Shown here: in pieces, positions 6,037-57,229 of the stretch
Numbering within the stretch: the first letter of the stretch is position 1
Layout: every line of letters starts with the position of its first letter
DNA from: Coniochaeta sp. PMI_546
Lineage: Eukaryota; Ascomycota; Sordariomycetes; Coniochaetales; Coniochaetaceae
Direction: 5' to 3'
DNA length: 64,000 bases
Assembly (NCBI GenBank): GCA_021432605.1
Contig: MU271147.1
Span: 1,736,001 to 1,800,000, forward strand
Notes under the pieces: generated by a model
Database searches by the model: none
The model's input: only the letters and a program-made list of their open reading frames with translations
Told to the model about the DNA's origin: nothing
Position numbers and translations under genes: made by a program

Positions 6037-6591
6037 AAGTGTTCTATGTATCATATATAAAAGCGTTCGTCAAGTGTCAGACGCCGGCGTGCCACCCATC
6101 CTGCCTGCTGCGAACCCTGTCTTTCCATGCACACCTTCAGTTTGGAAATCTGCGCATTGATTCTTATCAATGCATACACTACCTCTCGTCGGCGCTACCA
6201 TTTTGACTGGACAGCCGTTAGCATCTCCTCAGCAGTCTTGTATTGGTGATGCCAGCATCCCTCTGATCACCTTCGCGCCAAACACGTGGGACACGGGAGG
6301 AAAGTGCCCCCGTTTAATCCACTCGTCTACTTGTTCTTCATATGCCTGTTTCTCCTGCACAGAACTCTATTCCGGAGAGCTATCCCATACGGCCAGAATC
6401 CTGTCTGAATGGTGTAAAAGGTGCGTAACGATAGGAAGTTGGGAACATCAGTCTTTAAAAAAAAATTTCTAAGCGGTCTGTAATGTACAGTGACAACTCG
6501 GCGTGATTCAGAGGAGGGCAAAAAAGACGTGCATCTAGGAATGCTGGTGCTCTCTCTGAAAAAAAGAAGGAGAAAGGGGCAACAAAACAAA

Positions 6592-6710
6592 ACGTACAAC
6601 ACCAGGGATTCCCCGGTGGTCACCCACCCGAGTACTAGTCTGGCGATTACTGGCTTATCTGTGGGAGAGCGGACGGGATCCCGAGTTTTCCAGTATCTAT
6701 GGTCGTACGT
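6592..6710 (-). rRNA. 5S ribosomal RNA, full-length dispersed copy
   Basis: The minus strand from 6710 to 6592 gives a 119-nt sequence that starts ACGTACGACCATAG and contains CCCGTCCGCTC and GGGTGGGTGACCACC. It ends GGAATCCC...GTTGTACGT. These match fungal 5S rRNA as I know it (for example Neurospora-type), including its usual length. The first and last nine bases pair to form helix I. TTTT follows the 3' end, as expected for pol III termination. The middle (GCCAGTAATCGCCAGACTAG) is more divergent than a standard fungal 5S, so it may be a variant or partly decayed copy. Dispersed single 5S genes are normal in Pezizomycotina. Confidence 0.8.
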
Positions 6711-15801: not shown

Positions 15802-17513
15802 TTACAAGCGGGCAGTTCCATCGCTACCTCGATACTGCCTCCACTTTGACTTCATCCATTCGCCTCGTTCTACAATCAAAACGCATATTATGAGCAATGG
15901 GATCGTGGTGACAGCCCAGACCCAGATTGACATGGAACCTTGGCCGAACTGCTCAAAGTTCATTCCAAACACCGACGTGATATACGATATTGGCAGAAAA
16001 ATAAAGGTGAGCCGGTTCGTTGTCTTTGTTAGCTGGGTGACCAATTTGGCTTCTCTGGCGGATCTCTTCGCCGCTTGCACCGAGTCATTACTCATCAGCG
16101 TTGCCTTTCCGTCTTCACAGACTTTTAGGAGCGATCTAGCACGGGAAGTCAGATAGTCAAAGTCGCTGATAGCTGCTGAGTCGACACTGGAATGGCTCTC
16201 GCCTAATTTCCACTTGACAGGCGGGTCTCTGAGGAAGGCAAGAACATCGGAACAATGCTGTTCGAAACGTGATAAAGATGCCTTGATATAGTCGTATTGC
16301 ACCGTCGTCTCAAGTTTGGTGTGCTCGTAAGATGGAAAGTCGCTTCGTCCTCCGATCTCTAGAAGGACGTGATCGAGCATGTTCACGTATTGCAAGGCAG
16401 CTGCGGCGTTGAACATAAACAGCTCCTTGAGAACAGCCAGCGGCGAATCTGTCGAGCACGTGCTCCAGTCGATGGTGAAGCCGTAACGTGTATTAAGCAG
16501 GACTAGTGGCTGCATCGAGTGCGGGTGTATACCACGATCAGGCAATGTAACAGGGTGAGAGGCCCCTGTAGACTGGTTGTCGAAGAACACGGGGCAGAAG
16601 ACCAAGTCGGAAGCAACTGACGCAAAGTCCTCAGTCGGCGGTACGGGGATGTGAGCATGATCTACTTCGTTTCCGGCATCGCTCCAAATGAATACTAGGT
16701 CACTGTGAGTCTGGACAAGGCAAATTGAAGGATTATTGTTTGCTTACTCGTCCAGAAATTGCCCCTGTGGACAATGGTAGCGGTCATTTGCTGCTCTACT
16801 ACCAGTGTGCCACCATCGTGTACCTCCAACCGACGAATGATTGACCTTCCGGCCTCAGAGGCAGCGCTGTCCTGAAGAGAAAGGAACGCCCTCCGGAGCT
16901 GGGCGTTGCATTTCTCTCTAGCAATCTCCAGGCCGCGGATGTCCAGATTTCTCCCCCTGGATCCCACGAACACAATGGTTGGGATCTGCATGGTGAGAAC
17001 CTGCAGAGAGCGAGACGGGAGATCGGGGCCGGCGCTCCATTGCTGTCTGTTCCCGGAGATGATGGGCCCTAAGTGTTGGTGGAAGAAGCGGTAATCGAGA
17101 GAATATTTTGAACCAAGACAATTAAGCCAGTCTGCCGATGGTCGTCCGGTGAGGAAGAGTATCTCATTCTGAGATGGCGAGGCGGCCGAGGCTGTAAAGC
17201 CGTAGGGGTCATCGAAAGAGTTTGTATCAGGGGATTTGCCCGGCCTTAACAGGTATTGTATAACGAATGGCCGTCGTGCCGTGCTCGGGATATTGAAGAG
17301 ATGCTGTCGCTTAGGTGCTTTCTGGAACGGCACCTTCAAGTACTTTGCGAGATATGTCAAATATGCGGCAGAGTGCAGAGGATCGACGTCCAAGGACTTG
17401 ACTCGGTCGCTGAGCGCGAGTGCGTAACGTCTTGCTCTTTCCAGGCAGTCCGTTAAAGAATGGCCCTCATCATCAGTCGCAGCCTGACCACCTCCAGGCG
17501 GTCCGGTGTCCAT
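15802..17513 (-). CDS. CorA-like Mg2+ transporter family protein
   Basis: Exon 1 runs 17513-16748 and exon 2 about 16700-15802. The C-terminus has the CorA signature GMNF (VFGMNFEQFG) after helix 1 (FIFLPISYITS), and a second helix (WAVTTIPLLIICVLIV). A long cytosolic N-terminal part with a helical region (TLMSNDSVQAAKRSAREAKLVTQ) precedes them. This matches fungal CorA-like proteins with a large N-terminal domain. The intron is awkward. The obvious donor GTAAGC leaves phase 1, but no AG acceptor restores phase. The protein reads best as NFWT-SDLVFIW, which would need splicing within a shared AGT at both ends. Either one base has been lost or gained, or a non-consensus junction is used. It is divergent with the NLR gene at 17873, with 359 bp between starts. 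Confidence 0.75.
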
Positions 17514-17872
17514 TATTTGCTGTTCTTGGGGGCGATGGTCTCCCGGCTGTCTACTGAGGCCGCAAGATCGGTGCGGACAAGAGATCTTTTAGCTCTCTGT
17601 TTGACCTTAAGAGCTCCGCTTCATCTGATGCGCCATAAGTCGACAGCATTTGGTTGATATGCCCATATCACGAGAGGCCTCCTCGGGTTGCACTGATCTG
17701 CACCAGTGGTCATCCTTCAATACCCCTCAATGTGCAACATTAGTTAGCACAGCCCCTACGAGGCCAGTTGCTAGCCAATAAATTGGTCCGGTGTGACAGC
17801 CACAGGCACACATCTTGTCAACTGCAGATTGTTGTTGGGCAGCCATCGCGGTAACTCTTGCTGCGGCTGAGA
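17514..17872. promoter_or_regulatory. Short divergent promoter between CorA-like and NLR-like genes
   Basis: 359 bp separate the two divergent start codons. No specific operator is seen. The closeness makes co-regulation possible. Confidence 0.35.
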
Positions 17873-20800
17873 ATGGGGCGCGCACCTCGCGCTGCCATTA
17901 TATTTGCCTGCCGCCCGCCTTCCACGTTGTCGACCTTCTCCGAGCCTGACGTCTGCGACCAGAAAACTTTCTACATCGCAACGGAGATATGTACCTTACG
18001 GACCATCCCGATGCCAGTACTCGCCGAGGTCACGATTAGCGGCAGCGGCGACTCGCCCTACAAGAAGTAAGAAACCAAGCATAGCCAGTTTTCAACAAGT
18101 TGCACACTGCTCACCTGTTTCCTAGCTTCGTCGTCGTCCCGGGCTTCGCCGGGACTAACCTGGGTGATCGGACTTGTCCGCATTTCGACGAATGGCTCAG
18201 TAGGATTGTCGTTAAGTGTGCGACTAGAGCGCGCAGCTGGGTTTACAATCATGACATCCAGCTGAACGATCTGGAGTCTTGGGACAAATACTGCACCACT
18301 GGAGATGCATTGCTAGAGCAACTCCTGCTAATGCAGGACAAGTTGGGCGAAGTAAGACGTCCACACGCTTTCCGGGATTGAATATCTGCTGACCTTGGGC
18401 TAGGATGAAACAATCGTCATAATCGGTCACAAACTTGGATGCTACATCTTGAAAAAGGTGTCTCACGGCCTCTGACCAGACGTATTGATTGTTGGTATCG
18501 TCACGCTAACATCTCATAGGCCCTGATTGAAGCATGGAATAACGAACACAACGACGAATACAAACAGTTGCTCGACACCATCGAGACAATCATGCTTGTC
18601 GGCGAACCGTCCCTCAACCCCAAGAAGCCGGACGAATGGATCGACCTCATCTCGGAATGCGTGTCGCGGCAACGCGGCCTGCCCAAGCGGCTGGGCAGCG
18701 GCGTCACGGTCGGCTGCCTCCAAAACATATCCGACGTCTTTGAGACGATCCTGCTCCGTTCGACACTGTTCGACGTGTCTAGCACTAATCAACCGCAGCC
18801 GAAGCGCAAGTTTCGGCTGAAAAAGATGGAACACGACGGATGCATCGGCTGCGCCACGATACATGTCCGGCTTTTCACCACGTCGAGCGAGGAGAAATTA
18901 TTGGATTCTGGCCCAGGAGAACCTAACATCTGCCCTTTCCACCCCAAGAGTGCTCATTTCCAAAAACTTCTGATGCTGAACTCATCCCCGGAACTGCCGC
19001 AACTTGTCGCACCTAACAGCAGCGCTCACAGCAGCAGTACCGTCGCCGTGAACAGCATGGTCAATCCGGATGGTCTAGATTCACCCAATTCTGGACAGTT
19101 ACAGATGGCAACGCACAATCAGGTGGCTGAGCCAATAGCTAACGATAGTAACGACCAGCTAGCTTCTCCGGTCCGCTTGCAGCAGGCCAATGAGCAGATC
19201 TCTGAAGACCCCGGTGCCGAGCAGGTTAAGAGACTAGCACCGGAGGAACCAACTGAGAATATCGAAGACGTCGTTCCTCCTACGGATAGCATCGGTAACG
19301 AGAGCGAGGGCAACACGAATCTCCCACGTGCCACGAGATCAGCTGTGGCACCTGCAGGACGTACACGACAGCAAAACACTTCGAGCCGGCGTGAACGGAA
19401 GACATATTTCTCCAGTTCGATTCCTTCCAGAGACGCCAACTTTTACGGCCGGTCCAAGATGCTTGAGCAGCTCGAACGTGCTGTCCTGGGCACCCGAGAT
19501 GGCAACGCCACTCAAACCTCCCTTCAGCCAACGAATGCCAATCTCGTCTGGATCTCGGCTCCACCAGGAATGGGAAAAACATCCATCGCCATCGAGTTTG
19601 CCTACCGCTTCATGAAAAAGTTCGAGTACGTGATATGGCTCAACGCAACCTCGACCGCCAATCTGGGCAAGTACTGCCACGATTCCGCGGTAGCACTTGG
19701 TCTTGTCAACGGAAGAGTATGCCAGGACCATCATGTCAGTAGATCCAGGTTGATGGATTTCCTGAGGCGATCTTCGTCCCCCTGGCTTCTTGTCATAGAC
19801 GATTGTGCCAATGGCGTGGATATCTCCCCCTATGTGCCCAACGATGGGATGTGCTCCGTAGTTGCGACTGGGAGGCAACGGCCAGCGTCGACTCGCTGGT
19901 CAGTGATCGATGTCCCTCCATTCACGCCACAGGAAGCGGCAGAGTTCCTTATCAGCTGTGTTAAAGATAAGATCTCCAACGAAGATGCTGAAGGCATCTG
20001 CTCTGCAGCAGTCCGATATCATTGCTCCCCACTAGTGGTCCGCCACCTTGCCGAGTGGAGTACCCGAGCCGCCATCTCCTTCAAAGAGATCAGCGCACTA
20101 CTCAGCGCACAATCCAATGGAAATGGTATGCCGTTAGCATTTCGATTCAAGCCTGTCCACGAAGTCATGTCTTGTACGATGGACAGACTAGACATACCAG
20201 CAACTTCACTGTTGGTGACGCTCTGCTTTTATGATGCAACCCATGTGTCAAAGCGGCTGCTTCGAACGGCGTGGACGTGGAATGCCGCAGGATCCCGTCA
20301 AACTGACTCTAAGAACCTTGAGAGCACACTCTCTGGCGCCATTTCCTCACTGTGGCGTTCGGCGCTACTGGATATTGATGACTCCCAGACCGAATCATCA
20401 TATCAAATACACAGATCCGTCCAAGATTGGATACGCATGCGAGTGGACGATGAGACATGGAGGAATGGATTTGAGGCTGCTTGCTCTAGTCTTTGCTATC
20501 AGTGGCCATCAAAGAGGAAGTTGAAGAACATAACGGGCGGATTCTGGGAGGATTTTGATAATCTGCACACGCATGTGCATCATCTGGCCCACTGTGTCAC
20601 CCGAGACCGCTTAGTCGATCAACTATCGTACGACCCAGGTGACCAGTTCAAGCGACTTCTCGTGTATCATACTTGGTAAGCAACTGGTCTTTCCAAGGTA
20701 TCGAGTGCTTTGCTAAGGTGTGGTTGCAGGTATAACTCCCGACGGGGAAACGATGCCGAAGATGAAAATCTCCGCAACTTGACAGATTTTCTTCTCACAA

Positions 20801-21792
20801 CCACTCGCACCCCCAGCACAAAGAATGGCAGCACGAATAGACCACGCACTAGTCTTCCTCGAAGATGTATTCGTGTGATAGACGATGACAACAAGCCCAC
20901 TGCCAAGCTTGTCGATACCGGCGGCTCCTGTGCCCCATATATTGCCCTAAGCTACACCTGGGGACGCAGATCGCCTTCCTTCTCCCTCAACTCATCGAAC
21001 CTCAGCAAGTACAAGAAGGAGATCTGCGTTTCTACTCTTCCCAGACAGATAAGTGACGCCGTTCGCTTCTCGCAAAACATGGGCGTCAAATACCTCTGGG
21101 TCGACGCTCTCTGTATCGTTCAAGACGACCCCATCGAGGTGTCAGAGGAGCTAGACCGCGTCGTTCAGTATTACTCCAACTCCTCCATGGTGATCTGCGC
21201 CCTACAGCCTTCTCCCTCCTTCTCGCGTCTCAAGTGGCAGCCAAACCAGAGACTAGACATCCCCCCATACAGCATCCTGCGGTCGGGGGCGTTAGGAGAC
21301 GTGTTGGCCGAGTCTTCGTGGAAGAGGGCCTGGCTGCTGCAGGAGGGGTGTTTTAGCTCAACGGCCGACCACAAGCATGATCTGAGTGGAACTCGTACGC
21401 GGGAAGCTGCCGGCGGCTCGGGCCCTGCGCTTGAGAGGAAAAAGGTGAATTCACCTGATAAGATCAAGTTGAAGCCTGCCAGTCGCGCCGTCAAGCCGGA
21501 GTGGGTGGCGGAGGTCAAGCAGAAAAAGCCCTTTGATGGCGTCAGAGCGGAAGCCAATGACCCTCCAGAGGTGAAAAGGCCATACGAAGAGGTGCTCATC
21601 GCCTACATCACTGTCGCAATCTTTGCTACTGCGGGTTTTGTGAGGCTGGTGTCGTCGGCGTTATCCGAGAGTTCGCAACGCCTGGCGAGATACGGAAAAG
21701 AGAACCCCTGGCTTATATGCTGTGCTTTATGCATTGGGTCTGCCACAATTTCTTTTTATCTAGGCACTTGTATGACCGGTGAGGCGGTTTAG
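17873..21792 (+). CDS. NLR-like protein: pseudo-hydrolase, NB-ARC, C-terminal HET, two membrane helices
   Basis: Five exons, 17873-18066, 18126-18351, 18404-18457, 18520-20675 and 20730-21792, with consensus donors and acceptors and correct phase throughout, give 1,230 aa. Residues about 65-250 resemble the alpha/beta-hydrolase (LipA-like) front of fungal NLRs (FVVVPGFAGTNLGD). The nucleophile elbow reads IGHKLGC, with Lys where Ser is expected. About 280-440 is disordered. NB-ARC spans about 470-800: FYGR at its start, P-loop APPGMGKTS at 505-513, and Walker B LLVIDDC at about 582. No TPR, ankyrin or WD repeats are seen. HET motifs are YIALSYTWG (about 947), then LPRQISDAV and YLWVDALCIVQDD, then AWLLQEGC (about 1077). 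Two hydrophobic helices lie at about 1162-1185 and 1202-1222. The role is probably in non-self recognition or programmed cell death. The domain order is unusual. Confidence 0.85.
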
Positions 21793-23143
21793 AATGCTCA
21801 TGAATTCCTAGTGTGAATTCCAAGAGGTGGGACGTTACTTGACAATCAGAAGATGAGCAGAATCACGGTGGATTTACATCCATACCATTTCTGGACTTCT
21901 TTCTGGGCCATGGAGCTTACAAGACATTTACGATTATCTTCCGGTATCTGGGGCTTTTCTCCGGTCTACTTGAACCGGCTTTACCGATGTGATCTATACT
22001 CGCCCCAAGCGGCGAAATTACGAGACATGACAGCTTCAATGTATATTTGCCAGGGAATTCAAACCTGCTATTATTCCACGTACTGTGTTTTATATCTCGG
22101 ACAGGCTTCTTCTCGTCTAGCCACGAGTCGATGAGCTTGTTACGGTTGGTGTCTAGCTTTCACTGGTGAACTACATCGCCACGCATACCAACCCCACAGG
22201 ACAAAGCGGCGGCAGCACTGGCAGGCTCTTATCAGAGGGAAATAAGTGAGAGAAATATCCAGGCAGCATTTGAGAATGCTCTACGATAGTTATATATTTT
22301 CGGCTGTAAGTAAAGAACAACCGTGCTCACCTATATATCAGTGGCAGACACTATAGACACAGTTAGCAGTTTCGATAGACTGGGGCTTCTAATTAGACAT
22401 ACACGCTTTTCATCTATTCTGGATTGAACGACGAGGGACAATGATACGCCTTTCCGCTTGCTAAATATCTGCCCTTTATTGAACGCAAAAGATGACACTT
22501 GTAGAGTCAATGTATCTACTCAGAGGAGAAATGCAGTTCATTTTCAATAGGTACAAACATCCATGCCCCGGTTTGGTATTCTCTTAGCGGAAGGTCATAA
22601 TAGGCAGGATTCCCTGAAAAGAGAAGATATCTTTTACCCAAGTCTACAGGTGATAATCACTTGGGCGTGCGAACTGTTTGAATGTTGACACGACGAGCTA
22701 TCATTCCCGGGGCCGACGTGAATATCTATGATATTTATAGCGCTAGACTTCTCACTTTGTCTGTGAATTTGCAAGACACATATTATGTGGAACCTGTCTA
22801 CCACTGAATGGAATCATGCTCTTATGTTTCTGCAGATAATCTTATAAGGGCGTGCTCCATTCACGGCTACCAGGCGGCATCACCTACTCACGATGATAAA
22901 CCCAATCCTCTACTATATAAGGTGCCGTCCTTCTCGCCTTTCGGCTCTCTAAACTCAAGTGTCGCCCAAACGACATTGATATCCCGTCAGTCGCCACTCG
23001 AAGGACTTCGGTTTTGAGACTATCACGCATAAAATTCCACAGACTAGAGTCTAAAGAGCTTATGCTAAAGCTGTTTCCATACAGACAGTTATCTCGTTCT
23101 AGAGTAGATCTCGAGCTTTCGTGCGATCATCCTGCTTGAAAAC
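21793..23143. other. Gene-free stretch
   Basis: About 1.35 kb downstream of the NLR-like gene. Short ORFs at 21853-22134 and 22808-23017 have no motif. A TATATAA-like element near 22915 lies about 230 bp before the C2H2 gene and may be its promoter. No repeats or RNA genes were seen. Confidence 0.5.
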
Positions 23144-24190
23144 ATGGCTACTAAGCGCTCTACCACTCATCCAGATCGCACTTCGGACTCCCCAGAACAC
23201 GAGCCTGATCCTCAGCGTCCGCAGCTAGACATACCCAGTCACCATCAAGGAATTTATGGTGTTGTGGCTATTACTGAGGGAATGACTTCCCTAGGTCTGC
23301 AGTCGACAGCCGGAGCGCTGTCTAGCGGGGGATTGTCTTACTGGTCAGATGAACAAGTTCTGGAAGCGGAACGGGAGCTGTTTTCGGATATTTCTGGTAG
23401 TCATGTTGCACATTTCCAGCACCTGTCTGGCGACCACCAGCAAGCTGGGGCTTCTGGGTATCAGCACCTATATGGCAACTACCAGCAAGGCCAGGGGTCT
23501 GGGTATCAGCAGCATTATGGCAACTACCAGCAAGGCCAGGGGTCTGGGTATCAGCAGCATTATGGCAACTACCAGCAAGGCCAGGGTTCTGGGTATCAGC
23601 ACCTATATGTAGGACCCGGGCAAGTCTATGGCTATCTGCCATCTCAACAGGGCAATGCCAACCCACTAGAAATAGCAGGACCATCCTCCACGCCGGGCAT
23701 TGCAGCTTCAACACAACTTTCTCTCGGAGCCGCTTCCGCAGGCGGTAGTCGTGCGAACCCAGGACAAAATGGGGAATCGTCTCTCATGGCACCGGTCCCT
23801 GACTTGCAGGATATGGATCCGGCTCACTCGGAAGGGGACACAGTCGAGTAAGTGCGATAATCTGATCACGATCAACAGAATTTGATAGCTAACACATCTC
23901 GTATCTGCAGGCATGTCAAGACGTCGGGTTTTCGGTGCCCTATAAAAGGTTGCGTGAAGAACAGGTATCCCTGTGAGTCTATTGGCGAGTATGATCGACA
24001 CATTGCTGAGAATAAGCATTTCATGGGTTGGATATACCGCTGTCCCGAAGAAGCATGTGCAAGGTTGGGAGTAGCACAGGTTATCCAAACGATCACTGGG
24101 ATTCGGCTGCACATGCTGAAAAATCACGGGATCAGAATGACAGCGGCTCAGTGCCGGGACTACGTGCGGGAAGAAGAGGTAGAGGAATAA
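23144..24190 (+). CDS. C2H2 zinc-finger-like protein with Gln/Gly/Tyr repeat
   Basis: Two exons, 23144-23847 and 23911-24190, with donor GTAAGT and acceptor CTGCAG, give 327 aa. The N-terminal part is disordered and contains about four copies of a 15-residue unit of the form GYQQHYGNYQQGQGS. Exon 2 encodes two zinc-finger-like units. The first is FRCPIKGC with a later H-x5-H pair. The second is YRCPEEAC with H-x4-H (HMLKNH). The tail is acidic. This is probably a nuclear or RNA-associated protein. Tyr/Gly/Gln repeats resemble prion-like low-complexity segments, which is an inference. The protein family is not recognised. Confidence 0.65.
23455..23606 (+). repeat. 45-bp in-frame tandem repeat
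   Basis: Near-identical 45-bp units (core TATGGCAACTACCAGCAAGG) occur three times fully, with a diverged fourth at the 5' side and a partial unit at the 3' side. The copies are nearly identical in DNA, so the array is young or homogenised and probably varies in number between strains. Confidence 0.8.
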
Positions 24191-24847: not shown

Positions 24848-26653
24848 TCAGAAGTTCAGCCGGACCCTGTGCCCTGACCGCAATCCCGTTTGATACGGAA
24901 GACATTTCCACGAGCATCCACTCCTCAGGCACGGGATGAGATTCTCCAAGATCTTGTCTCTGCTAGGAATGGCAGTGAGATCTGCACTTATATGAGACGG
25001 TGTCTGCTCCCTTCCAAGTCCGCCAAATATGCCTCTGTCGTGGTAGAAGAATTCAATCCACTGTGTCCGGGGGATCACGAAGAACTTCTTGCAGACCGCA
25101 CAGTGCTGACCATCGTCGTATCTTGACTTGGCAGCCGCTGTGATTGCCGTGGAGAGAATATCCGCTTCCGTCGCCAGGTCTGCAAAGTCCTCCGGCCGTC
25201 CGGACCTCGCAAGGCTTCTGGCACAGAGCTCGACCAGAGAGGGGACACGGCTAATACCCTGATTTGAACCTATACGGGACTGCGATTCGCCCTGACAGCG
25301 CGCCAGGGGTCCTCTCTGCTCATCGGGCTCCTGGATCAGGATCTGATTTCGTTCGCCTCCTGCCAAGGGCACCCGAAAGGAGGAGTAGATACGCCCGACT
25401 GTGTCGGTGTATTGCACGGCTCCGCGACCCAGATACCATGCTACAAGACATTTAATGGACGGCTCGTCGTGCTCGCCGACTTGCTGGACGTTTCTGAGGA
25501 ATCGAACTTTAAGATAATCCGGGAGCTCGGAAATCGGTAAAGGTTTTAGGTCAAGAAGCCACCCCTTTGTAGAGGAAGGCTCAGGCTCGTAGAAGTCATT
25601 GCCGACAAGATTGAGAGTGTCGAGCATAGGAAGCCGCTCAACCAGTTCGAAAGGAAGATAACGGAGCCTGTTGAAGGATAAATTTAGAGACCGCAGGTTT
25701 CGGCACTTCGCAACTGCTGGTGGCAGCTCGGTCAGCTTGTTATGTCGAAGGCTGAGATCGACGAGATTTTCAATGTCGAAGAGCGTTCCTGGCAGGCGGG
25801 TAAGCCGGTTGTTGGCCATTATCAGCACTATTTTTGACTCTCTGTGAAGATATCCGTCTTTAGATGTCGTCAGTGGATCCCGAGAGTGTCGGGCAGGCGT
25901 GTGTAACTGTACTCTTGGCACAAGCCTCAGTTCTACCAGTGGTCGAAATGTATCAATGGATATTGAGTCATTATCAAGACCGAGATTCCTGCGCGTGATG
26001 TTAGTTTCTGCTTATCTTGTGGAAACTTATGTGGCCTACGTTAGATCAATCACGCTTTCGCCCCGGTCAATACGACTCTCGATTGCTTGCCTGACCGCCA
26101 ACTGTTTCCTGGCAGGTTCTGTAGAATAACCTTGGCTGGAAGGGATCCCTTGGCTTGACGAGAGCGTCTTCCCAGGAGACAATACCTGACTCGACGGAAA
26201 TCCTCGGTTTGGTGTAAAGACTTGGCTCTGGAGAGGATTAGATGATGGGGGCGTTGGAGGTGGATGTCCACCACCGCTATGGGCTCTGGCAATCCCTTTA
26301 GCCCCATTTTCCTGGCTTCCGCTGTTTCGGACCTTGGCTCTGGGTGTCTCCGGGACAATGTCCTCATTAGAGTCATCATCGTTCTGACTTGGATCCGACA
26401 TCATGCGGTTGTGGTCGTACCACGTGCCTCTGTAGCGGCGCTTCTGCCTCGCCCGAACATAGTTATCCAAAGCCGGATCATCATCGCTCGAAAAGACACC
26501 TATATCACTAGAGGGTGCAGTGTCTGTTCCGGAAGCCTTGAATGGATATGCCCGCTTGCGGCTGTAGGCATCAGGTTCAGCAGTATCATGTGACCAAGCT
26601 GGCAGCTGAGGCAGCGTCGGCTCTTCCGCGAAGGGGTCCTGATCATTTGCCAT
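24848..26653 (-). CDS. Leucine-rich repeat protein with disordered N-terminus
   Basis: Two exons, 26653-26040 and 25988-24848, with donor GTAGGC and acceptor CGCAG, give 584 aa. Residues 1-205 are disordered and Ser/Pro-rich with acidic DDDSNED segments. Residues about 245-340 contain four to five LRRs of the LxxLPxxLxxLxNLxxLxLxxN type (for example NLVDLSLRHNKLTELP and NLRSLNLSFNRLRYLP). A conserved-looking C-terminal region of about 200 residues follows. It contains CAVCKKFF and a CLRSGCSWKC cluster that could bind zinc. This fungal LRR protein type is conserved but uncharacterised to my knowledge. It is probably cytosolic or nuclear. Confidence 0.8.
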
Positions 26654-41740: not shown

Positions 41741-42631
41741 GAGAAAAGATGGTGATCGGGTGCCAGAGGTTGTGTATATTGGGAAGGGGCTGCTGTTCTC
41801 GACACGCCATCTTTGTAGGATTCATGAATCATCCGACCGCTTACGAGGGTTCAAAAACACAATTGCACATGCTATGTATTGCCTCACCATGCTGGTCGCC
41901 GTGCCATATCTCCAAGAGAGTCAGAAGACCAGTAGCGATGGTCGAGTTGAGAGTCACTTGGTGATGTGAAATTACTAGGTAGGTAAGGTAGCTTTGCGGG
42001 CTCCTCCAACGACGATGTAATTATCACATGCAATGCCTTCCTCCTCTGGTTATGCAAAACGATATCTCGTTCCTTCCTTGAGGTAGACCTTAATTCAGGT
42101 TCCACTAGAATTATAATGAAGGTCCCACTTTCCACTTCGCTGTAACTCGTTCCTGACATTGCTCTTCGAAGCACCCTCCCAAGTATAGGGCGCGAAAAGA
42201 ACGACGAGCATCTTCTACCTTCCTTGATCTGCCAATGACCTATCATCATATTTTTGGCGGTGACTTCAAAATATTTTGAAATCTAAGGTAGTTCCTCCCT
42301 TTAAGGTAGCCTGAGGTAACCTGCATTTCTTGCGCAAAGCAAGTTAAGTACCTTACCTTGAGTAACTCGTGTAAGGGAAGGCTTTGGTTGGCGCTATCCA
42401 CCTGGCAGTTGGGCTCATGTTTCAACCTGTTCTGTCGGACATTTCTGGTCGTTTGTCTGTCCTTACAGATTCCCTGCCATTCCTATAGTTGTGTCTGTTC
42501 TTCGGCATCACTACCTGATCATATCCTCGCCGTACTTCCACGAAGGCGACCCCGGCATTTTTTTTCTGTTCTGTTACTTTCATCGTTTTCATATACCTCT
42601 AGCTCTAGACCACACTCAATACCTTTTCGCA
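41741..42631. other. Intergenic, promoter of the methyltransferase-like gene
   Basis: About 890 bp. The last 130 bases are pyrimidine-rich, as in many fungal 5' leaders. No motif-bearing ORF is seen. Confidence 0.5.
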
Positions 42632-45600
42632 ATGGCGTCCAATCCAGTCCCCATGGAGTCCACATGTACGGACCCGGAGCACATGAAGTGGCACATGCAC
42701 TTCCCGACGTCCATCCACAAAACCAGGGCGAGACTCCTGGAGTGGGCTGAAACTGGAACTTACGAATGTCACGCTATAAACTGGTACTACGCCTACTTGG
42801 CCCAGAAGTTCATCCATGGATCGAGTCATCCAGCAACCGGAATATACAAGGAGCGGTGGACTCCTGAAGAGGCCGAGCGATCCGATCACCGACACTACAT
42901 GTACATCAACGATGAAATTTTAGATCATGCAGCAAGTCAGCTGGGCCTCAAGCCTTGCCAACATGTCCTCGATATCGATTCTGCATTCGGCCACACTGGC
43001 CGCTACCTACATCAAAAGTACGGCACGATCGTGACGAGGGTCAGGCCCGGCGACAGTGCGAGAATCTACCACACGATCTCGTCATGCATCGATTTGCACA
43101 CCGGCTTTACCAGCCGAGCATACTCCTCACCGGAGGACTTCTTCGAGCTCTTGTGGGGTCAAGGGAACTTCGACTCTGTTATTTCGCTCATGACTCTGTT
43201 CTAGTTGAATCCAGAACACCACGCGGAATTCTTACAGAAAGCGGCCCATCATCTCACAGTGCGGGGAAAGATATACATTGAGGACTTCTACACCATAAAG
43301 GAACTCGACGAAGAGGAAACTGACATAGTCCAACGCCTGCTCCATACCCAGGTTCCTCCAACCCGAAAGCAGTTCGAAGAGAACCTGAGAAAAGCAGCCG
43401 TCTTCAAAGTCATCGAGTTCGAGGATGTGTCGGACCGAATGCAACAGTACGCGTCGCAAAAGGAAATCTCCCTGCGGAAGCAGGCGCTGGAAGATATCGA
43501 TGACAGGCCCATTCATGACTGCGCTGCCAACTTCTACAGCGATGTCGCTCTTCTGCTTGCCAAGGGTGTGCTGGCTGTCTTCCGTATGACTGCTCAGCTT
43601 CGCAAGCGTCACAACACGTTAGCAAGCATCAACGGCACGGCCGCACAGGACCCATTAAGCAGCTCGACAAATGATTTGACGGAGCCGTTGCCAAGCAGCG
43701 ATGTGAACCAGGTGAAGGAGCTGCCGATGGGCAACGGTTCAGGGGCAAGTCTTCCGACTGAAGAACCACCTTCTGATCATACACTTGAAAGTGTTCCGCA
43801 ATCTGAAGCTGCTTCTGAAGGTGACACGGCTTCCATTTCTGACGCAGCTACTGGCCAAAGTACGACCGACAATGGAGACGCAATTATTGTGAATCAGACT
43901 CCTGCCAACCTCGAGAATACACCTGAGCCAGGAAGCACTATGGAGTCTGCGGTCCCTTCTACGTCTGCGAATCCCTCTGAGTCTGAGCCTGGAAGTGCTC
44001 TAGAGTCTGCCGCCCCTTCTGAGTCTGCGGTCCTTTCTGAGTCTGCTTCTCCTCCCGCGCCGACGGCCGTCCATATTACGGAGCGCACTGCTGGACCTAA
44101 CTCGGCATCAGACCCTAGGACCACTCATGACTCTGAGCCAGTTTCCGGGGCGGCCGCTACTTGCACGGCTGATCCTTGTCATGGAGACGTGCAAGAGAAT
44201 GAAAATCAACACAACAAGAAAAACTCGAGTGAGCGCGCAAAAGATGAAATCATGAACACGGATTCCAACAAAGTCACACCAGAAGCATCACAGGCCTGCG
44301 ATGATGGAAAAGTCAACGGAAGTCATGTGGGAAGAAGCAACGGTCATGTCTATCAAGAGCCGAATCCCGAGCACGCTAGTCCTCAGGTTCCTCACCGCCA
44401 GCGATCCAACGATGTACAGGAGACTGCTTCCTTACAACAGGCCCCCCGCGAATCGGAAACTGCTCCTGCACCCAAGACAGTTCCAGAGTCTGGGACTGAC
44501 AACATGAGGGAGGCCGTTCCACAAACTCACAGAAATGGGATAACACAAGCTACTCCTGACTCCTCCACCGATGATACGACAGAAAAGAGCCCAGAGTCAC
44601 TGGCCAAAGGTCTGCAAGAGACTTCCCGCGAGTCGCAGCCCGAAGGTACGGTAGAGACCTCTCCTGAGAGTGAGCCAAACAGTCTAGAAGGACTTAGTCC
44701 CGAGTCGAAGACCATCGGTGTGGTGGGGACTGCTCCTCGCCCCTTAAGAGACTTTATAAGAGGCACAAGAAATGGATTGGGAGACGACCTTGTTCAAGTG
44801 ACCCCTGCGGAGTCTGGGGCCAATGCTGATGCAAAGACTACTGTCGAGTCCAAGGCTTTCGGTGCGGAGGTGACCGCTTCAAATTCCGTGGCCGAGATTA
44901 TGGGTCGGTCAAGTGCCGGGCGGGAGAGCAATGGCATGCAAGAAACCACTACCGAGGGTGATATCAAGAGTGTGCTAGAGACACCTCCCCAAGCCAAAAC
45001 CGCTTCCCCAACCGATGTTAGCACCGAAACAAAGACCGAAAGTCAAGAGCAGGGCAAAGAGAAACTTCTTCAAATTCTCACCGATCTCAAGTCTGAGCCC
45101 ATGCTCAAGGCTCCCACGAATCTCGAATCTGCTCCCGCACTGAAGTCTGGGACTTCTGACGAACCTTCCACGGAGAGTAAGAAGGAGGCTATTCCGGCAC
45201 CCGAAGCATCCCCGGCGCTCAAAGTTACTCTCGAGTCCTCGGTCACTCCCGAACTCGAGGGCAACGATCTGACACAGAGTAACAACAAGAAGCATGGAAC
45301 CAATAAACGAAAAGAAGGTGGCTACTGGCAAGATGATAGCGGTCTGCTATGGGACGACGACTGGGCAGTGGTTGCGAACAAGAGAAACCGCAAAGGGAAG
45401 AACCGGAAGGGTAAGGAGGCCATGCTTCACCAGGAGGTCAAGATAACGATAGCTAGCATCATCCCCGAGGACACAAACGGCACGTTCGGTGGTAACAAGA
45501 ATGCCGACAAAAGCAATGGGAAAGGCAAGGCCAGTGGCTCCGACGAAGACCCTCATATCGATAGGCAAAATCCCTATTCCATCCTTCAAAATGGATATAG

Positions 45601-47632
45601 ACATTCGCACAAGTCGTTTCATACAACAAGGGCATCGCCGGCGGCACGCAAGAACTCCTCAGTCGGCGGTTCATACTCCAATACCACGAATGTTGGAGGG
45701 AAGTATAACAATTACAGAGCACCACGTTATCGAGCCCCAGCCACAACGGCATCGATCGGTCGTGAGATGGGTAATGTTAGCCAGCAGACGATTGATAACA
45801 AGGTGTTTCGCGCTGTTTATGCCCCTCGTGACTCTGGCGGCACGGTCCCAAGGATTAGCAACAACATTCCCTTACCCCCTTTGGTGGGCGGCCCAGGCTC
45901 CAATAATCTTTTCCGGAAGTCAGACCATCCGCCGACTGTGAGCCTACCTACGATTCAACCTCCTAAAGTTGAGGCCGCTTTGCCAGAACCCCAGGAACTT
46001 CGGGCCGTTGATGATCTAATCAACAACCAGGACGATAGAAAGGCCAAGACGGGAGCCGCCAGAGGAGAGCGGCCAGAAGCAAAGACTGTGTCTGCCCGAA
46101 AATGGATCAGTCCAAGCATAGAGAAGCAAAAGGCTGCCAAGGAACAGTCTTCGATAGCTGTGGTAGACAAAGGAGATTCCATGCGAACAAAACCGGTTGA
46201 AGCAACGGCGGACGTCCCTGCGACAAAAGTCGAACCTGTACACGATTCATGGCCTACAAAAGCGACGAGCAGTGAAGTGAAAGACGCCGCCAGAGGCGCT
46301 CCACCAAGTGTGACAAATTCGGTAACCAAGTTGTCATTTGGTGACATGTTGAGAATGGAACCCCCCTTGAAACCACCCGTCGTCCAGATACCGCCAGTGA
46401 CGTTCGAAAAGAAGGTTCTCAAAAAAGGACAAGGCATCCACAATCCAGCAGCACCTGAGAGTAGAGAAGGGAAGCGTCCAGGCCAGGTTGCAGCCAAAAC
46501 AACTCAATCTATCGACTGGGCGGAAGACGTGGAAGAGGATCCGGAAGCGGAATGGCCGAGTACGCAAGTCAAGAAGCCAAAGCTACGATTTGGAGATGCT
46601 GAGGGGTCAAGTCTAAAGACAACCCAAGAGTCCAACAGCCCAGAAGATATGCCCGAAGTACAACCCGAAAATGCTGATACAACAGACAACAAGCCAGGGG
46701 AACAAGTCGAAGTTGCTGGGCGGCAGGAAGACCAAAAGCCAGAGCCGGAGATGCCATCGGTTGGACTGCCAAACACTGAGTCCTGGTCGTCAGAGCCGGT
46801 GACTTGCAATGGCAAGTCGCCAGGACACACCAATGGATCACCATCAGCAGATACCAATGGGTTGTCACCAGGAAATACCAATGGACCACCACCAGGAGTC
46901 ATCAATGGGTCACAACTAGGGGTCATCAATGGGTTACAACCAGAAGTCATCAATGGGTCGCCACCAGGAAATACCAATGGATCACTACCAGAAGATACCA
47001 ACGGATGGCCACCGGAAGAGGCCAATGGGCCACCACCAAGAGATACCAAGAGCAAGTCACCAGGAGACACCAATGGGTTGCAACCAGGAGATATCAATGG
47101 GTCACCAACAGGATACACCAATGGATCACTACCAAGGGACTGCAATGGATGGCCACCGGAAGATGCCAATGGATGGCCACCAGAAGATACCGATGGGTCG
47201 CTACCAGGAGACACCGATGGATCGTCAACAAATCTCGATGCGGAGGAGACTGGACCGCCAGCAACGGAGGCCCATCCCCCAACACCGAGTGACGATCCAG
47301 GTGCATGGGAAATTGTTGTGAGCATGCCACCGATGGCAGTGGTCGACGCGTTCTATCTCGCGGATGATCTGCGGTTGGTTGAAAACGAGCTGAACTACAT
47401 GGAGTCCAGGCTACAGTTTTGGTCGTACCGTCTAGCCACCTACAAGAACAGACCAGGTGCACCGCGGATGCGGCGAGAAGTGTTGCTGGGCAGGACAAAT
47501 GCGGTTCTGCACCAGTTGGCTGACCTGGTTGTTCAGATCAGGAAAATCCCTGTCTGGCAGGAGATGATCCATGGCGGAGAGAACGAACAGGGCCACTGGG
47601 GGCCTGCGTACCTGAATGGCAACGGCAGCTAA
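42632..47632 (+). CDS. SAM methyltransferase domain fused to a giant disordered tail, one in-frame TAG
   Basis: An uninterrupted 1,667-codon frame from ATG 42632, apart from a TAG at 43202-43204 (codon 191). The first 300 residues form one methyltransferase domain of the sarcosine/cyclopropane-fatty-acid type: WYYAYLAQKF, ERWTPEEAE, HVLDIDSAFGHTGRYL, FDSVISLMTLF, then after the TAG NPEHHAEFLQKAAHHL and GKIYIEDFY. Motif I (DIDSAFGHTG) departs from the usual DxGxGxG. Residues about 330-1390 are Ser/Thr/Glu/Pro-rich and disordered. Octapeptide repeats span about 1392-1527, and a helical C-terminal region of about 110 residues is conserved-looking (ENELNYMESRLQFWSYRL). The open frame beyond the stop argues against an old pseudogene. 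Readthrough, a recent CAG-to-TAG change or an error are the options. Confidence 0.7.
46807..47214 (+). repeat. 24-bp in-frame tandem repeat, about 17 units
   Basis: Seventeen octapeptide units of the form NG-x-x-P-x-x-T (for example NGSPPGNT, NGLQPGDI, NGWPPEDA) lie end to end with exact 24-bp spacing inside the methyltransferase-fusion gene. Units differ by several bases, so the array is moderately old, but the frame is fully kept. Confidence 0.85.
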
Positions 47633-54192: not shown

Positions 54193-57100
54193 ATGTACAC
54201 GAAAGCCCTCGCCGTGGCGGCGCTTGCCGTCTCTCCTGCTGTTGCGCAGTACTCAGTCAACATCTACTGTAAGGACCTGGGCCGTTCGTGCTTATCGCCT
54301 TTGTACTAACGGCACTAGGGGGTCAAACGACCGGTACGGACCTCGCGACCGTGTGCAACAGTGACGGGTTCGAGTATATCACTCTCGCCTTTATCAACAA
54401 CTCACCCGAGCAGGATACTTCTGGCTTGAATTACCCAGGCTCAAACTTCGCTGGAAACTGCGGCCCCCAGGTCCGTTGAAGCCATATGATTTACAACTTC
54501 TTTCCTGTGGGCGATCACTAACACAAATTCAGGTCTATGAGAACCCGAACAACAACAATGCCAAGTCTAAACTCCAGAGTCAATGTACCGCCATTACCAA
54601 CGGCATTGCCGCTTGCCAGCAGAAGGGAAAGAAAGTGTTGCTATCTATCGGAGGTGCTTGGATCGATGGTACGTGGAGCAGACATGGTCGCAGGCTGTGG
54701 AAATTGTACTGACATCTCACGGGAAGGTACCAACTACACTGTCTCCTCCGTTCAAGCTGGCCAGGATTTCGCCGACTTCTTATGGTCCGCATACGGCCCC
54801 AAGGCCCCCGGTTACACTGGACCCAGGCCGTTTGGTGACAACGTCATTTCTGGCTTTGACTTCGATATCGAGACGAAGTTCGGTATGTTTTTGGCTCCGT
54901 AATGTTGATAGCCGTGCGCTGACTGTCTACAGCGGACCAATCCGGATACGTGGCCTTGATCTCGAGGCTTCGCGACTACTTCACTGATGCTACTGGCACC
55001 TATGTCATCACCGGAGCCCCTCAGTGTCCGTTGGATCCGCGATTCTTCGACATGGATCAGATGATCACTCAGGCCCAGTTCGACCTCTTATGGATCCAGT
55101 TCTACAATAACCCTAGCTGTGACTACGTGACCGGGAATGCGGACCCTGAGTCACCCAATTTCATCCAGTGGCAGAACTTTATTGCCGGGACTGCCAGTTC
55201 GGGCGCCAAGCTCTTCGTCGGCCTTCCCGGAGACTCAACCACCGCCAGCGCCGGCAGCGGCTATCTAGAACCGGATGCCGCGTATCTCCTGATGAAGGAC
55301 TTGAAGGGCCAGCCCTCGTTCGGCGGTGCTATGGTTTGGGACGCTTCAACGGGTGGCTCGAATGTCCTGCCAAACGGGCGCAACTACTACGAAAACCTGC
55401 ACGACTCGCTCAACAACATCGTTGTCCCGATTCCCACCACGACGACCACTTCGGCCACCGCCACGCCGACGGCTTGCGTGCCCCATACGTACACCGTGGT
55501 TCCGGGCGACTACTGCTGGCTCATCGCCACGAACAACGGTCTGACCGTTGACCAGCTGATTGCACTGAACCCCACGCTCGGCTCACAATGCGCCATTTAC
55601 CCGGGCGATGTCCTGAACCTTTCTACCCCTTGCCCGGCCACCTCGACCACGACCTCGACGATCTCGACCACCAGTAGCATCTCGACTACGACGACCACTG
55701 CGCAATCCACGACGTCGACTGAAAGCTCGACCTCGACTACCGAAACCTCCACCAGCTCGACCGAGACTTCCACCAGCTCGACCGAGACTTCCACCAGCTC
55801 GACCGAGACTTCCACCAGCTCGACTGAGACTTCCACGAGCTCGACCGAGACTTCCACCAGCTCGACCGAGACTTCCACCAGCTCGACCGAAACCTCCACG
55901 AGCTCGACCGAGACTTCCACCAGCTCGACTGAGACGTCCGTGTCTACGACAAGCTCCGAGACCTCGACAACTTCCGCTGAAAGCTCAACATCGACTAGCG
56001 AGACCTCCACTAGCTCGGCTGAGAGTTCCACGTCGGCGACAAGCACCGACAGCTCGACCAGCACCGAGACGTCCACCAGCGCCTCCGAGACATCCACCGA
56101 GACCTCGGCATCTTCTACCGAGACTTCAACCGCGACCGACGCCTCCACAACTACGGAGGAGAGCGGAAGCACGGAGACTTCGACCACTAGTGACGTGTCG
56201 ACGACGTCGGACGTTTCCACGACCACGGATGTTTCCACGACAGCCGATCCCACCACCTCGTCTACCACCTCCACTGAGGTCCCTCTGACCACCGGAACTT
56301 CTGGAGACAGCAGCACCGTCTCTGCACCCTACGGAAACGGCACGTCCACTGACTCGGCCACGTCTAGCGCCTCCTCCGGGTCGCTCGTGGATGCTACGTC
56401 CACCCTGCCGCCCTACAGCAACAGCACCACCACGACCGGCACTCAGACCACACCGAGCCAGACCGGCTCTGCCTCCGAGACGAGCGGTTCGGCTTCCAGC
56501 ACCCTCGGCCCCGACACCACCGACTCGGCCAGCCTGACCACCAGCACGATCTACAGCACAACCGTGTACACCGTCACCTCCTGCGCACCCACGGTCACCA
56601 ACTGCCCCGCCGGCCACGTCACGACCGAGACCATCGTCATCGGCACCACCGTCTGCCCCGTCGTCGACGTGACCGCCACCGTCGTGCCCGTCACCACGCC
56701 TCCCGCAAGCTCCGGCGAGTGGACCACCAGCACCGTCTACTCCACGACCGTGTACACCATCACCTCCTGCCCGGCCTCGGTCCCCAACTGCCCGGGCAAG
56801 GGCTCGGTCACGACCGAGATCATCCCGGTGTACACGACCGTGTGCCCCGTCACCGCGACCGCGACAGGGGGCAACGGCCTCCCCGCCAAGCCGACCGGTG
56901 GCGCCGGCGCCGGTGCCGGCTCGGAGTCGCTGCCCAAGCCCACCGCCGGCGGCATCAAGGAGCAGGGCTCGACCACCACCACCAAGGTGACCAGCGTCGG
57001 CTACACCTTCGTCACCGTCCCCTCCAAAGGACCCAGCGCCGGCCTGCCCGCGCCCAGCGGCAACGGCACGAGCCTTGTCATCAGCTACACCGTCAAGCCC

Positions 57101-57229
57101 ACCGGCGGCGCGACGGTGACGACCGCCGCTGCCGCGAGCAGCACCAAGGCCGTCACCGCCGGTGCCGGACGAAACGGTGTTGCGCTCGGCCTGTCGGGTC
57201 TCCTTGCCGCTGCTGTCATGCTTATCTAA
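54193..57229 (+). CDS. GH18 class III chitinase with LysM and GPI-type C-terminus
   Basis: Five exons, 54193-54268, 54319-54470, 54533-54668, 54727-54882 and 54933-57229, in phase, give 938 aa. A signal peptide (MYTKALAVAALAVSPAVAQ) precedes the GH18 barrel: YWGQ at the start, KVLLSIGG, and GFDFDIE (DxxDxE catalytic motif, acid Glu at about 170). QCPLDPRFFD and FGGAMVWDAS follow. One LysM (TYTVVPGDYCWLIATNNGL...IYPGDVLNL) lies at about 357-402. A Ser/Thr-rich stalk holds a 7-residue repeat. Two modules of the YSTTVYTVTSC type lie at about 712 and 774. The C-terminal hydrophobic stretch (ALGLSGLLAAAVMLI) after a small-residue region suggests a GPI anchor. A cell-wall chitinase in remodelling or chitin binding is expected. 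Confidence 0.92.
55738..55930 (+). repeat. 21-bp in-frame Ser/Thr tandem repeat in the chitinase stalk
   Basis: About nine near-identical 21-bp units (core ACCGAGACTTCCACCAGCTC) encode STETSTS. They form the start of the O-mannosylation-prone stalk. Near-identity of units suggests recent copy-number change. Confidence 0.85.

What the first reader, a model, noticed from the sequence alone, without database searches (positions are those of the whole stretch)
17873..21792. NLR-like protein with HET domain at the C-terminal side, after NB-ARC
Hand-spliced exons with correct phase give one 1,230-aa chain: hydrolase-like, NB-ARC, HET, then two membrane helices. In well-known fungal NLRs with HET (HET-E/HET-D type) HET is N-terminal and repeats are C-terminal. 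Here no repeats are found and HET follows the NTPase. The key join (20675 to 20730) uses GTAAGC and TTGCAG and keeps phase, so the order is supported by the sequence but not proven by transcripts.
Basis: partly seen in the sequence, partly recalled or inferred. Interest (0 to 1): 0.78.

Follow-up and report, generated by a model that had tools for sequence, protein, structure and literature searches.

The report
Fungal NLR with C-terminal HET domain
A mould gene appears to encode an immune-type switch protein whose cell-death-type HET domain sits at the tail end, where a sensor normally lies, a rearranged version of a known kind of fungal self/non-self receptor that still needs transcript proof.

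Summary
The reading largely holds up on sequence. Five exons (17873-21792, +) join without stops into 1,230 aa: weakly hydrolase-like N-terminus; NB-ARC switch with winged helix; complete HET domain (PF06985, 1.1e-20); charged linker; two hydrophobic helices. No TPR, ankyrin or WD40 repeat was matched.

The NB-ARC core matches bacterial FxsT-type NB-ARC-TPR proteins up to about where TPRs would start; its AlphaFold model is Apaf-1-like. The critical 54-nt intron (20676-20729) holds an in-frame TAA. It scores best of 17 introns that could join the two frames and as well as two of its three sister introns. The HET frame has no Met before 21079, inside the HET domain; a separate HET gene with one intron would need one of six weak routes. 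Homology across the junction is weak. No transcripts or fungal relatives could be consulted.

Best reading: an NB-ARC receptor whose TPR sensor was replaced by a membrane-anchored HET module. Whether HET is effector or bait is open. New variant of a known kind; not HET-E/HET-D type (no N-terminal HET, NACHT or WD40).

The parts
17873..18066 (+). exon 1 (start Met; another in-frame Met at aa 47)
18126..18351 (+). exon 2, weakly alpha/beta-hydrolase-like
   Evidence: E 0.13-0.18 for aa 61-240
18404..18457 (+). exon 3, holds GHKLG (aa 148-152), Lys where a hydrolase would have its nucleophile Ser (placement by eye)
18520..20675 (+). exon 4: end of the N-terminal part, long linker, NB-ARC core, winged helix
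19420..20622 (+). stretch matching NCBIfam FxsT (NF040586) positions 1-386 of 830; Walker A GMGKTS, Walker B LLVIDD, MHD-like IHR
20179..20454 (+). DUF7779, the helical/winged-helix part after NB-ARC
   Evidence: E 4.6e-8
20676..20729 (+). intron 4, 54 nt, GTAAGC...TTGCAG, in-frame TAA at 20677
20730..21792 (+). exon 5 with stop codon TAG
20938..21345 (+). HET domain PF06985, complete
   Evidence: E 1.1e-20
21589..21657 (+). first hydrophobic helix
21706..21771 (+). second hydrophobic helix

Best explanation
One fused gene encodes an NLR-like switch protein. It descends from a SesB-like/NB-ARC/TPR receptor that lost its TPR array and gained a HET module with a C-terminal two-helix membrane hairpin in its place. 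Nucleotide exchange in the NB-ARC core, set off by a ligand or by a change at the membrane, would make it oligomerise, cluster the HET domains at a membrane and start a HET-type cell-death response. The N-terminal hydrolase-like part looks catalytically dead (Lys at the nucleophile position) and would be a regulatory or sensing part. Retention of intron 4 would give a HET-less form of about 877 aa that could act as a brake. Shown by sequence: the domains, their order and the splice signals. Inferred: ancestry, dead hydrolase, oligomerisation, HET output and control by intron retention.
For: Gene structure and open frame. HET full-length 1.1e-20 and DUF7779 4.6e-8. FxsT-type NB-ARC core 2.2e-46 over profile positions 1-386 of 830, the rest unmatched. 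Apaf-1-like fold: model pLDDT 81.8, best Foldseek E 4.6e-12. Walker A, Walker B and MHD-like residues fall in columns invariant over 35 rows. Intron 4 is best of 17. No Met in the HET frame before 21079. SesB-like occurs with NB-ARC, and NB-ARC most often with TPR, in Sordariales (PMC12258605, section 13 read). HET is described as a cell-death-inducing domain (PMC10890737, passages).
Against: No transcript and no fungal relative could be examined. Homology across the junction is weak, and neither NCBIfam nor Pfam sees it. In canonical NLRs the C-terminal part senses, so HET there may be bait rather than effector. The hydrolase assignment is weak and the SesB-like ancestry rests on motifs recalled and read by eye. 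The branch site of intron 4 (CTAAG) matches 4 of 5 consensus letters. The HET fold and its catalytic residues could not be tested.
Confidence: 0.42

Rival explanations
1. Integrated decoy or sensor: the HET domain was copied onto the NLR as bait for something that attacks or binds HET-domain proteins. Interference with it releases the NB-ARC switch, and the output is made elsewhere.
For: The HET lies where the sensor normally lies. Extra C-terminal domains in fungal NLRs are read as putative decoys: nine of 12 PKinase-bearing Sordariales NLRs carry the kinase C-terminally (PMC12258605, sections 14 and 20 read), and unusual domains were proposed as decoys in PMC5658179 (passages).
Against: HET is itself described as death-inducing, so a free HET on an oligomerising platform would be risky bait. 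No stand-alone parent HET gene could be sought, because no genome of the source is held.
Confidence: 0.25
2. Degenerating private fusion: an NLR and a HET gene became joined by deletion, and the product is a relic without function.
For: TPR half absent, apparent loss of the nucleophile Ser, weak hydrolase signal, and no HET-like sequence recognised after the Pfam domain.
Against: The whole 1,230-codon frame is open; 0 of 2000 shuffles of exon 5 are stop-free. Switch residues are kept in invariant columns, and intron signals are intact.
Confidence: 0.16
3. Two genes: an NB-ARC gene ending at TAA 20677 and a separate HET gene with its own promoter and an upstream start.
For: Stand-alone HET genes are abundant in fungi (PMC10197012, passages). 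Profile evidence across the join is weak, and one reverse frame scores as high as the HET frame in codon usage in 20731-20937. A transcript starting inside exon 4 (Met at 20437) is not excluded.
Against: No Met in the HET frame before 21079, inside the domain. Only 6 of 23 one-intron routes start outside the NB-ARC frame, each scoring 8 of 14 against 12 for intron 4. The NB-ARC product would end inside a predicted helix.
Confidence: 0.14

Closest known systems
SesB-like/NB-ARC/TPR fungal NLRs
   Same: NB-ARC core and winged helix; a hydrolase-like N-terminus is suggested by position and motif, weakly
   Different: no TPR array; HET plus two hydrophobic helices at the C-terminus; Lys at the nucleophile place
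HET-E/HET-D/HET-R (HNWD) of Podospora anserina
   Same: HET domain joined to a STAND NTPase
   Different: HET is C-terminal, the NTPase is NB-ARC rather than NACHT, no WD40 repeats
Two-effector fungal NLRs (PMC9815663 passages, PMC10197012 section 13)
   Same: two candidate output domains on one NLR
   Different: those are described as consecutive at the N-terminus; here they flank the switch
Fungal NLRs with extra C-terminal domains (PKinase, zinc finger, SPRY; PMC12258605)
   Same: non-repeat domain on the C-terminal side
   Different: HET is named as an N-terminal domain in the sections and passages I saw; its tables of rare domains could not be read
FxsT NB-ARC-TPR proteins of prokaryotes (NCBIfam NF040586)
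   Same: NB-ARC and winged-helix core, 2.2e-46
   Different: 158.8 bits against the family cut-off of 300; TPR half unmatched

Membership tests
NLR / STAND protein | NB-ARC or NACHT switch with Walker A, Walker B and winged helix | tested here: met
   Pfam NB-ARC itself is 22.4 bits against a cut-off of 23.5 and is not listed for the whole chain
NLR / STAND protein | C-terminal superstructure-forming repeats | tested here: not met
   no repeat family; at most part of one degenerate TPR
NLR / STAND protein | N-terminal effector domain | tested here: inconclusive
   hydrolase-type hits E 0.13-0.25 only
HET-E/HET-D type (HNWD) | N-terminal HET | tested here: not met
   HET at aa 947-1082 of 1230
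HET-E/HET-D type (HNWD) | NACHT NTPase | tested here: not met
   NB-ARC, DUF7779 and FxsT matched, NACHT not listed
HET-E/HET-D type (HNWD) | WD40 repeats | tested here: not met
   none listed
HET domain PF06985 | match over the curated cut-off along the whole profile | tested here: met
   74.8 bits against 22.5, positions 1-146 of 146
HET domain PF06985 | cell-death activity | not testable with these tools
   needs expression
HET domain PF06985 | TIR-like fold and conserved glutamate | tested here: inconclusive
   exon 5 model mean pLDDT 37.8, not usable
Active SesB-like hydrolase | GxSxG nucleophile | tested here: not met
   GHKLG at aa 148-152; the equivalence to GxSxG is by eye, no SesB alignment was run
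FxsT family NF040586 | score above the curated cut-off over the whole protein, TPR half included | tested here: not met
   158.8 bits against 300, positions 1-386 of 830
Integrated-decoy NLR | domain copied from a separate protein that a pathogen targets | not testable with these tools
   no genome of the source is held

The most novel reading that the evidence does not exclude
An inverted, membrane-tethered fungal NLR: the death-inducing HET domain has taken the sensor's place at the C-terminus and is fixed to a membrane, the N-terminal enzyme has become a pseudoenzyme regulator, and retention of a 54-nt intron with an in-frame stop switches between HET-armed and HET-less receptors.
Probability: 0.25. 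Interest if true: 0.72.

Novelty: new variant of a known kind. Interest (0 to 1): 0.5.

Why it matters
The fungal NLR surveys I saw describe output domains as N-terminal and sensors as C-terminal. A HET on the sensor side would show that this layout can be inverted. It would give a testable case for whether HET acts as executioner or as bait, and bear on how HET kills, which the het-B paper calls currently unknown (PMC10890737, passages). No description of a C-terminal HET on an NLR was seen in the listings of ten paper searches or in the passages read. These cover open-licence PMC full text only. Supplementary tables that list rare architectures could not be read, and protein databases may hold such proteins.

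Tried and rejected
Tried without result. No whole genome is held for the window. No relative of exon 4 or exon 5 was found in viral contigs by pattern scan, none of exon 5 in genome contigs, none of exon 4 in phages at E 1e-5. Exon 5 against plasmids gave 7 records, all with E 0.1 or worse. HET was found in 0 of 398 genomes of one phylum and 0 of 2 genomes (one of the two is also); 0 of 14 control genomes rang, so this shows nothing. AlphaFold of exon 5 alone is unusable (mean pLDDT 37.8); no fold search was made with it. No Pfam family in the two pieces across the junction. PADLOC gave two weak ATPase-region hits to exon 4 (E 0.036 and 0.084) and none to exon 5.

Rejected: HET-E/HET-D membership (three defining features not met). 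CorA as source of the C-terminal hairpin (no GMN motif by eye; CorA not listed). Readthrough of the TAA (no evidence for it; the intron explains it).

Results against my reading: the NCBIfam FxsT match ends at the same residue, about aa 859, with or without exon 5, and scores slightly lower with it (157.0 against 157.8 bits). 13 of 500 shuffles and 20 of 1000 random stop-free continuations score at least as well as the real exon-5 start. Codon usage between intron 4 and HET is only modestly coding: 50 of 1000 stop-free shuffles reach it, and one reverse frame equals it. Pfam NB-ARC is below its cut-off.

Full report
The finding concerns a gene on the + strand of what is evidently a filamentous fungal genome: short introns, a HET domain, and neighbours such as EMC1, a tyrosinase and a WD40 protein that looks LIS1-like by eye. 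The species is not known and no whole genome is held for the window.

Gene model. Joining 17873-18066, 18126-18351, 18404-18457, 18520-20675 and 20730-21792 gives 1,230 codons and a stop, with introns of 59, 52, 62 and 54 nt. The two long frames, 18520-20679 and 20680-21792, are in the same phase and are separated by a single TAA at 20677. That TAA lies inside the 54-nt intron 4. The intron length is a multiple of three, so splicing keeps the frame, and retention would end the protein at about 877 aa.

Is the join real? I listed the GT-AG introns of 42-130 nt with donor at 20500-20677 and acceptor up to 20935 that link the NB-ARC frame to the HET frame without a stop. There are 17, and 20676-20729 scores best, 12 of 14 on a simple donor/branch/acceptor consensus; introns 1-3 of the gene score 12, 13 and 12. 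The consensus is recalled general knowledge of ascomycete introns. The first methionine in the HET frame is at 21079, inside the HET domain, so a stand-alone HET gene needs an upstream exon. Of 23 routes with an ATG at 20400-20935 and one intron, 17 use the NB-ARC frame and 6 use another frame; those 6 all score 8 of 14. Routes with two introns were not listed. Codon usage between intron 4 and the HET domain (20731-20937), trained on nine stretches of the window that include other parts of this gene, favours the HET frame over the two other forward frames (0.003 against -0.354 and -0.683 bits per codon), but one reverse frame does as well (0.034), and 50 of 1000 stop-free shuffles reach the value. 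The evidence is therefore good on splice logic and modest on content. Transcripts are missing.

Homology across the join. I built a profile from 88 of 90 fetched bacterial or archaeal loci (89 gave a match, one of them too short to use). It scores the spliced protein 174.6 bits, ending at aa 890, and exon 4 alone 172.6 bits, ending at aa 862. With only a 40-residue continuation the real one reaches 175.5; 13 of 500 shuffles and 20 of 1000 random stop-free pieces do at least as well, and it is the best of 13 acceptors tried. In an alignment with 10 plasmid relatives the join lies where their first TPR begins. The NCBIfam FxsT profile, in contrast, stops at about aa 859 whether or not exon 5 is present and does not gain from it, and Pfam sees no TPR there. 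I take this as weak support.

Domains. HET: 74.8 bits against a cut-off of 22.5, E 1.1e-20, complete. Three motif blocks that I recall as typical of HET are present by eye (YIALSYTWG, YLWVDALCIVQDD, RAWLLQEG). DUF7779: 4.6e-8. NB-ARC: 8.5e-5 when exon 4's frame is searched alone, just under its cut-off, and not listed for the whole chain. FxsT NF040586: 2.2e-46 over positions 1-386 of 830, below that family's own cut-off. Walker A, Walker B and the MHD-like His lie in columns invariant over 35 aligned rows; the 34 relatives there are a choice of mine from the 60 of 88 coordinates printed. The AlphaFold model of aa 451-876 from that alignment has mean pLDDT 81.8. Its best match is Apaf-1 (Foldseek E 4.6e-12, TM 0.64 on the query), followed by CED-4 and plant NLR structures. 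Its last helix, of low confidence (pLDDT about 52), runs to the exon end, so a protein ending at TAA 20677 would stop within a helix.

N-terminus. The sequence reads like an alpha/beta hydrolase of the SesB-like kind (recalled, by eye), but Pfam gives only E 0.13-0.25 and sequences of solved structures nothing below E 1. If the reading by eye is right, the nucleophile elbow is GHKLG, with Lys150 in place of Ser. The start codon is also open; another Met lies at aa 47.

C-terminus. After HET come about 80 residues rich in charge and two hydrophobic stretches with Kyte-Doolittle peaks of 2.05 and 1.77; no 19-residue window starting before aa 1150 exceeds 1.30. Family hits there are weak and of generic transporter type (best E 0.064). 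The single-sequence AlphaFold model of exon 5 is too poor to use.

Mechanism. I favour a receptor in which the NB-ARC switch gathers HET domains at a membrane to start a cell-death response, the hydrolase-like part being regulatory. HET as integrated decoy is the closest rival, because extra C-terminal domains in fungal NLRs have been read that way (PMC12258605, sections 14 and 20 read; PMC5658179, passages). Decay and two genes are less likely.

Known context. The surveys I saw place HET at the N-terminus of NLRs: PMC4986451 (passages and section 12), PMC9815663 (passages), PMC10197012 (passages and section 13), PMC12258605 (passages, outline and sections 13, 14, 20) and PMC12881547 (passages). 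Two-effector NLRs are described as having two consecutive N-terminal domains. PMC1325252 (passages) mentions two HET-s/LopB proteins, one with an adjacent NACHT at the N- and one at the C-terminus, so a reversed order has a precedent for a different effector. A phrase search for 'C-terminal HET domain' found 0 papers, and six hyphenated order names found one unrelated paper. The survey authors report rare extra C-terminal annotations in supplementary tables that I could not read, so a described example may exist.

Verdict. It is a new variant of a known kind, of moderate interest until transcripts and orthologues are seen.

Noticed in passing
15802-17588 (-): Head-to-head neighbour: CorA-like protein (PF01544, E 2e-6) in two overlapping ORFs with a GMN motif by eye; the first Met of the upstream ORF lies roughly 360 bp from the NLR start, so the two may share a promoter region.
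   Followed up: partly
42362-47629 (+): 1,475-aa open frame (43205-47629) without Pfam match at 1e-3, low in complexity, with tandem repeats of 24-nt units at 46820-47223; a 280-codon frame in the same phase lies just upstream, one stop apart.
   Followed up: partly
23108-23851 (+): ORF 3' of the NLR with a 45-nt tandem repeat (23417-23609) encoding a QHLYGNYQQGQGSGY-type unit; no Pfam match.
   Followed up: no
54923-57226 (+): LysM protein (1.7e-10) with 21-nt Ser/Thr-rich tandem repeats.
   Followed up: no
24851-26011 (-): LRR protein (LRR_8 1.9e-15).
   Followed up: no
6591-6710 (-): A single 5S rRNA gene (96 bits).
   Followed up: no
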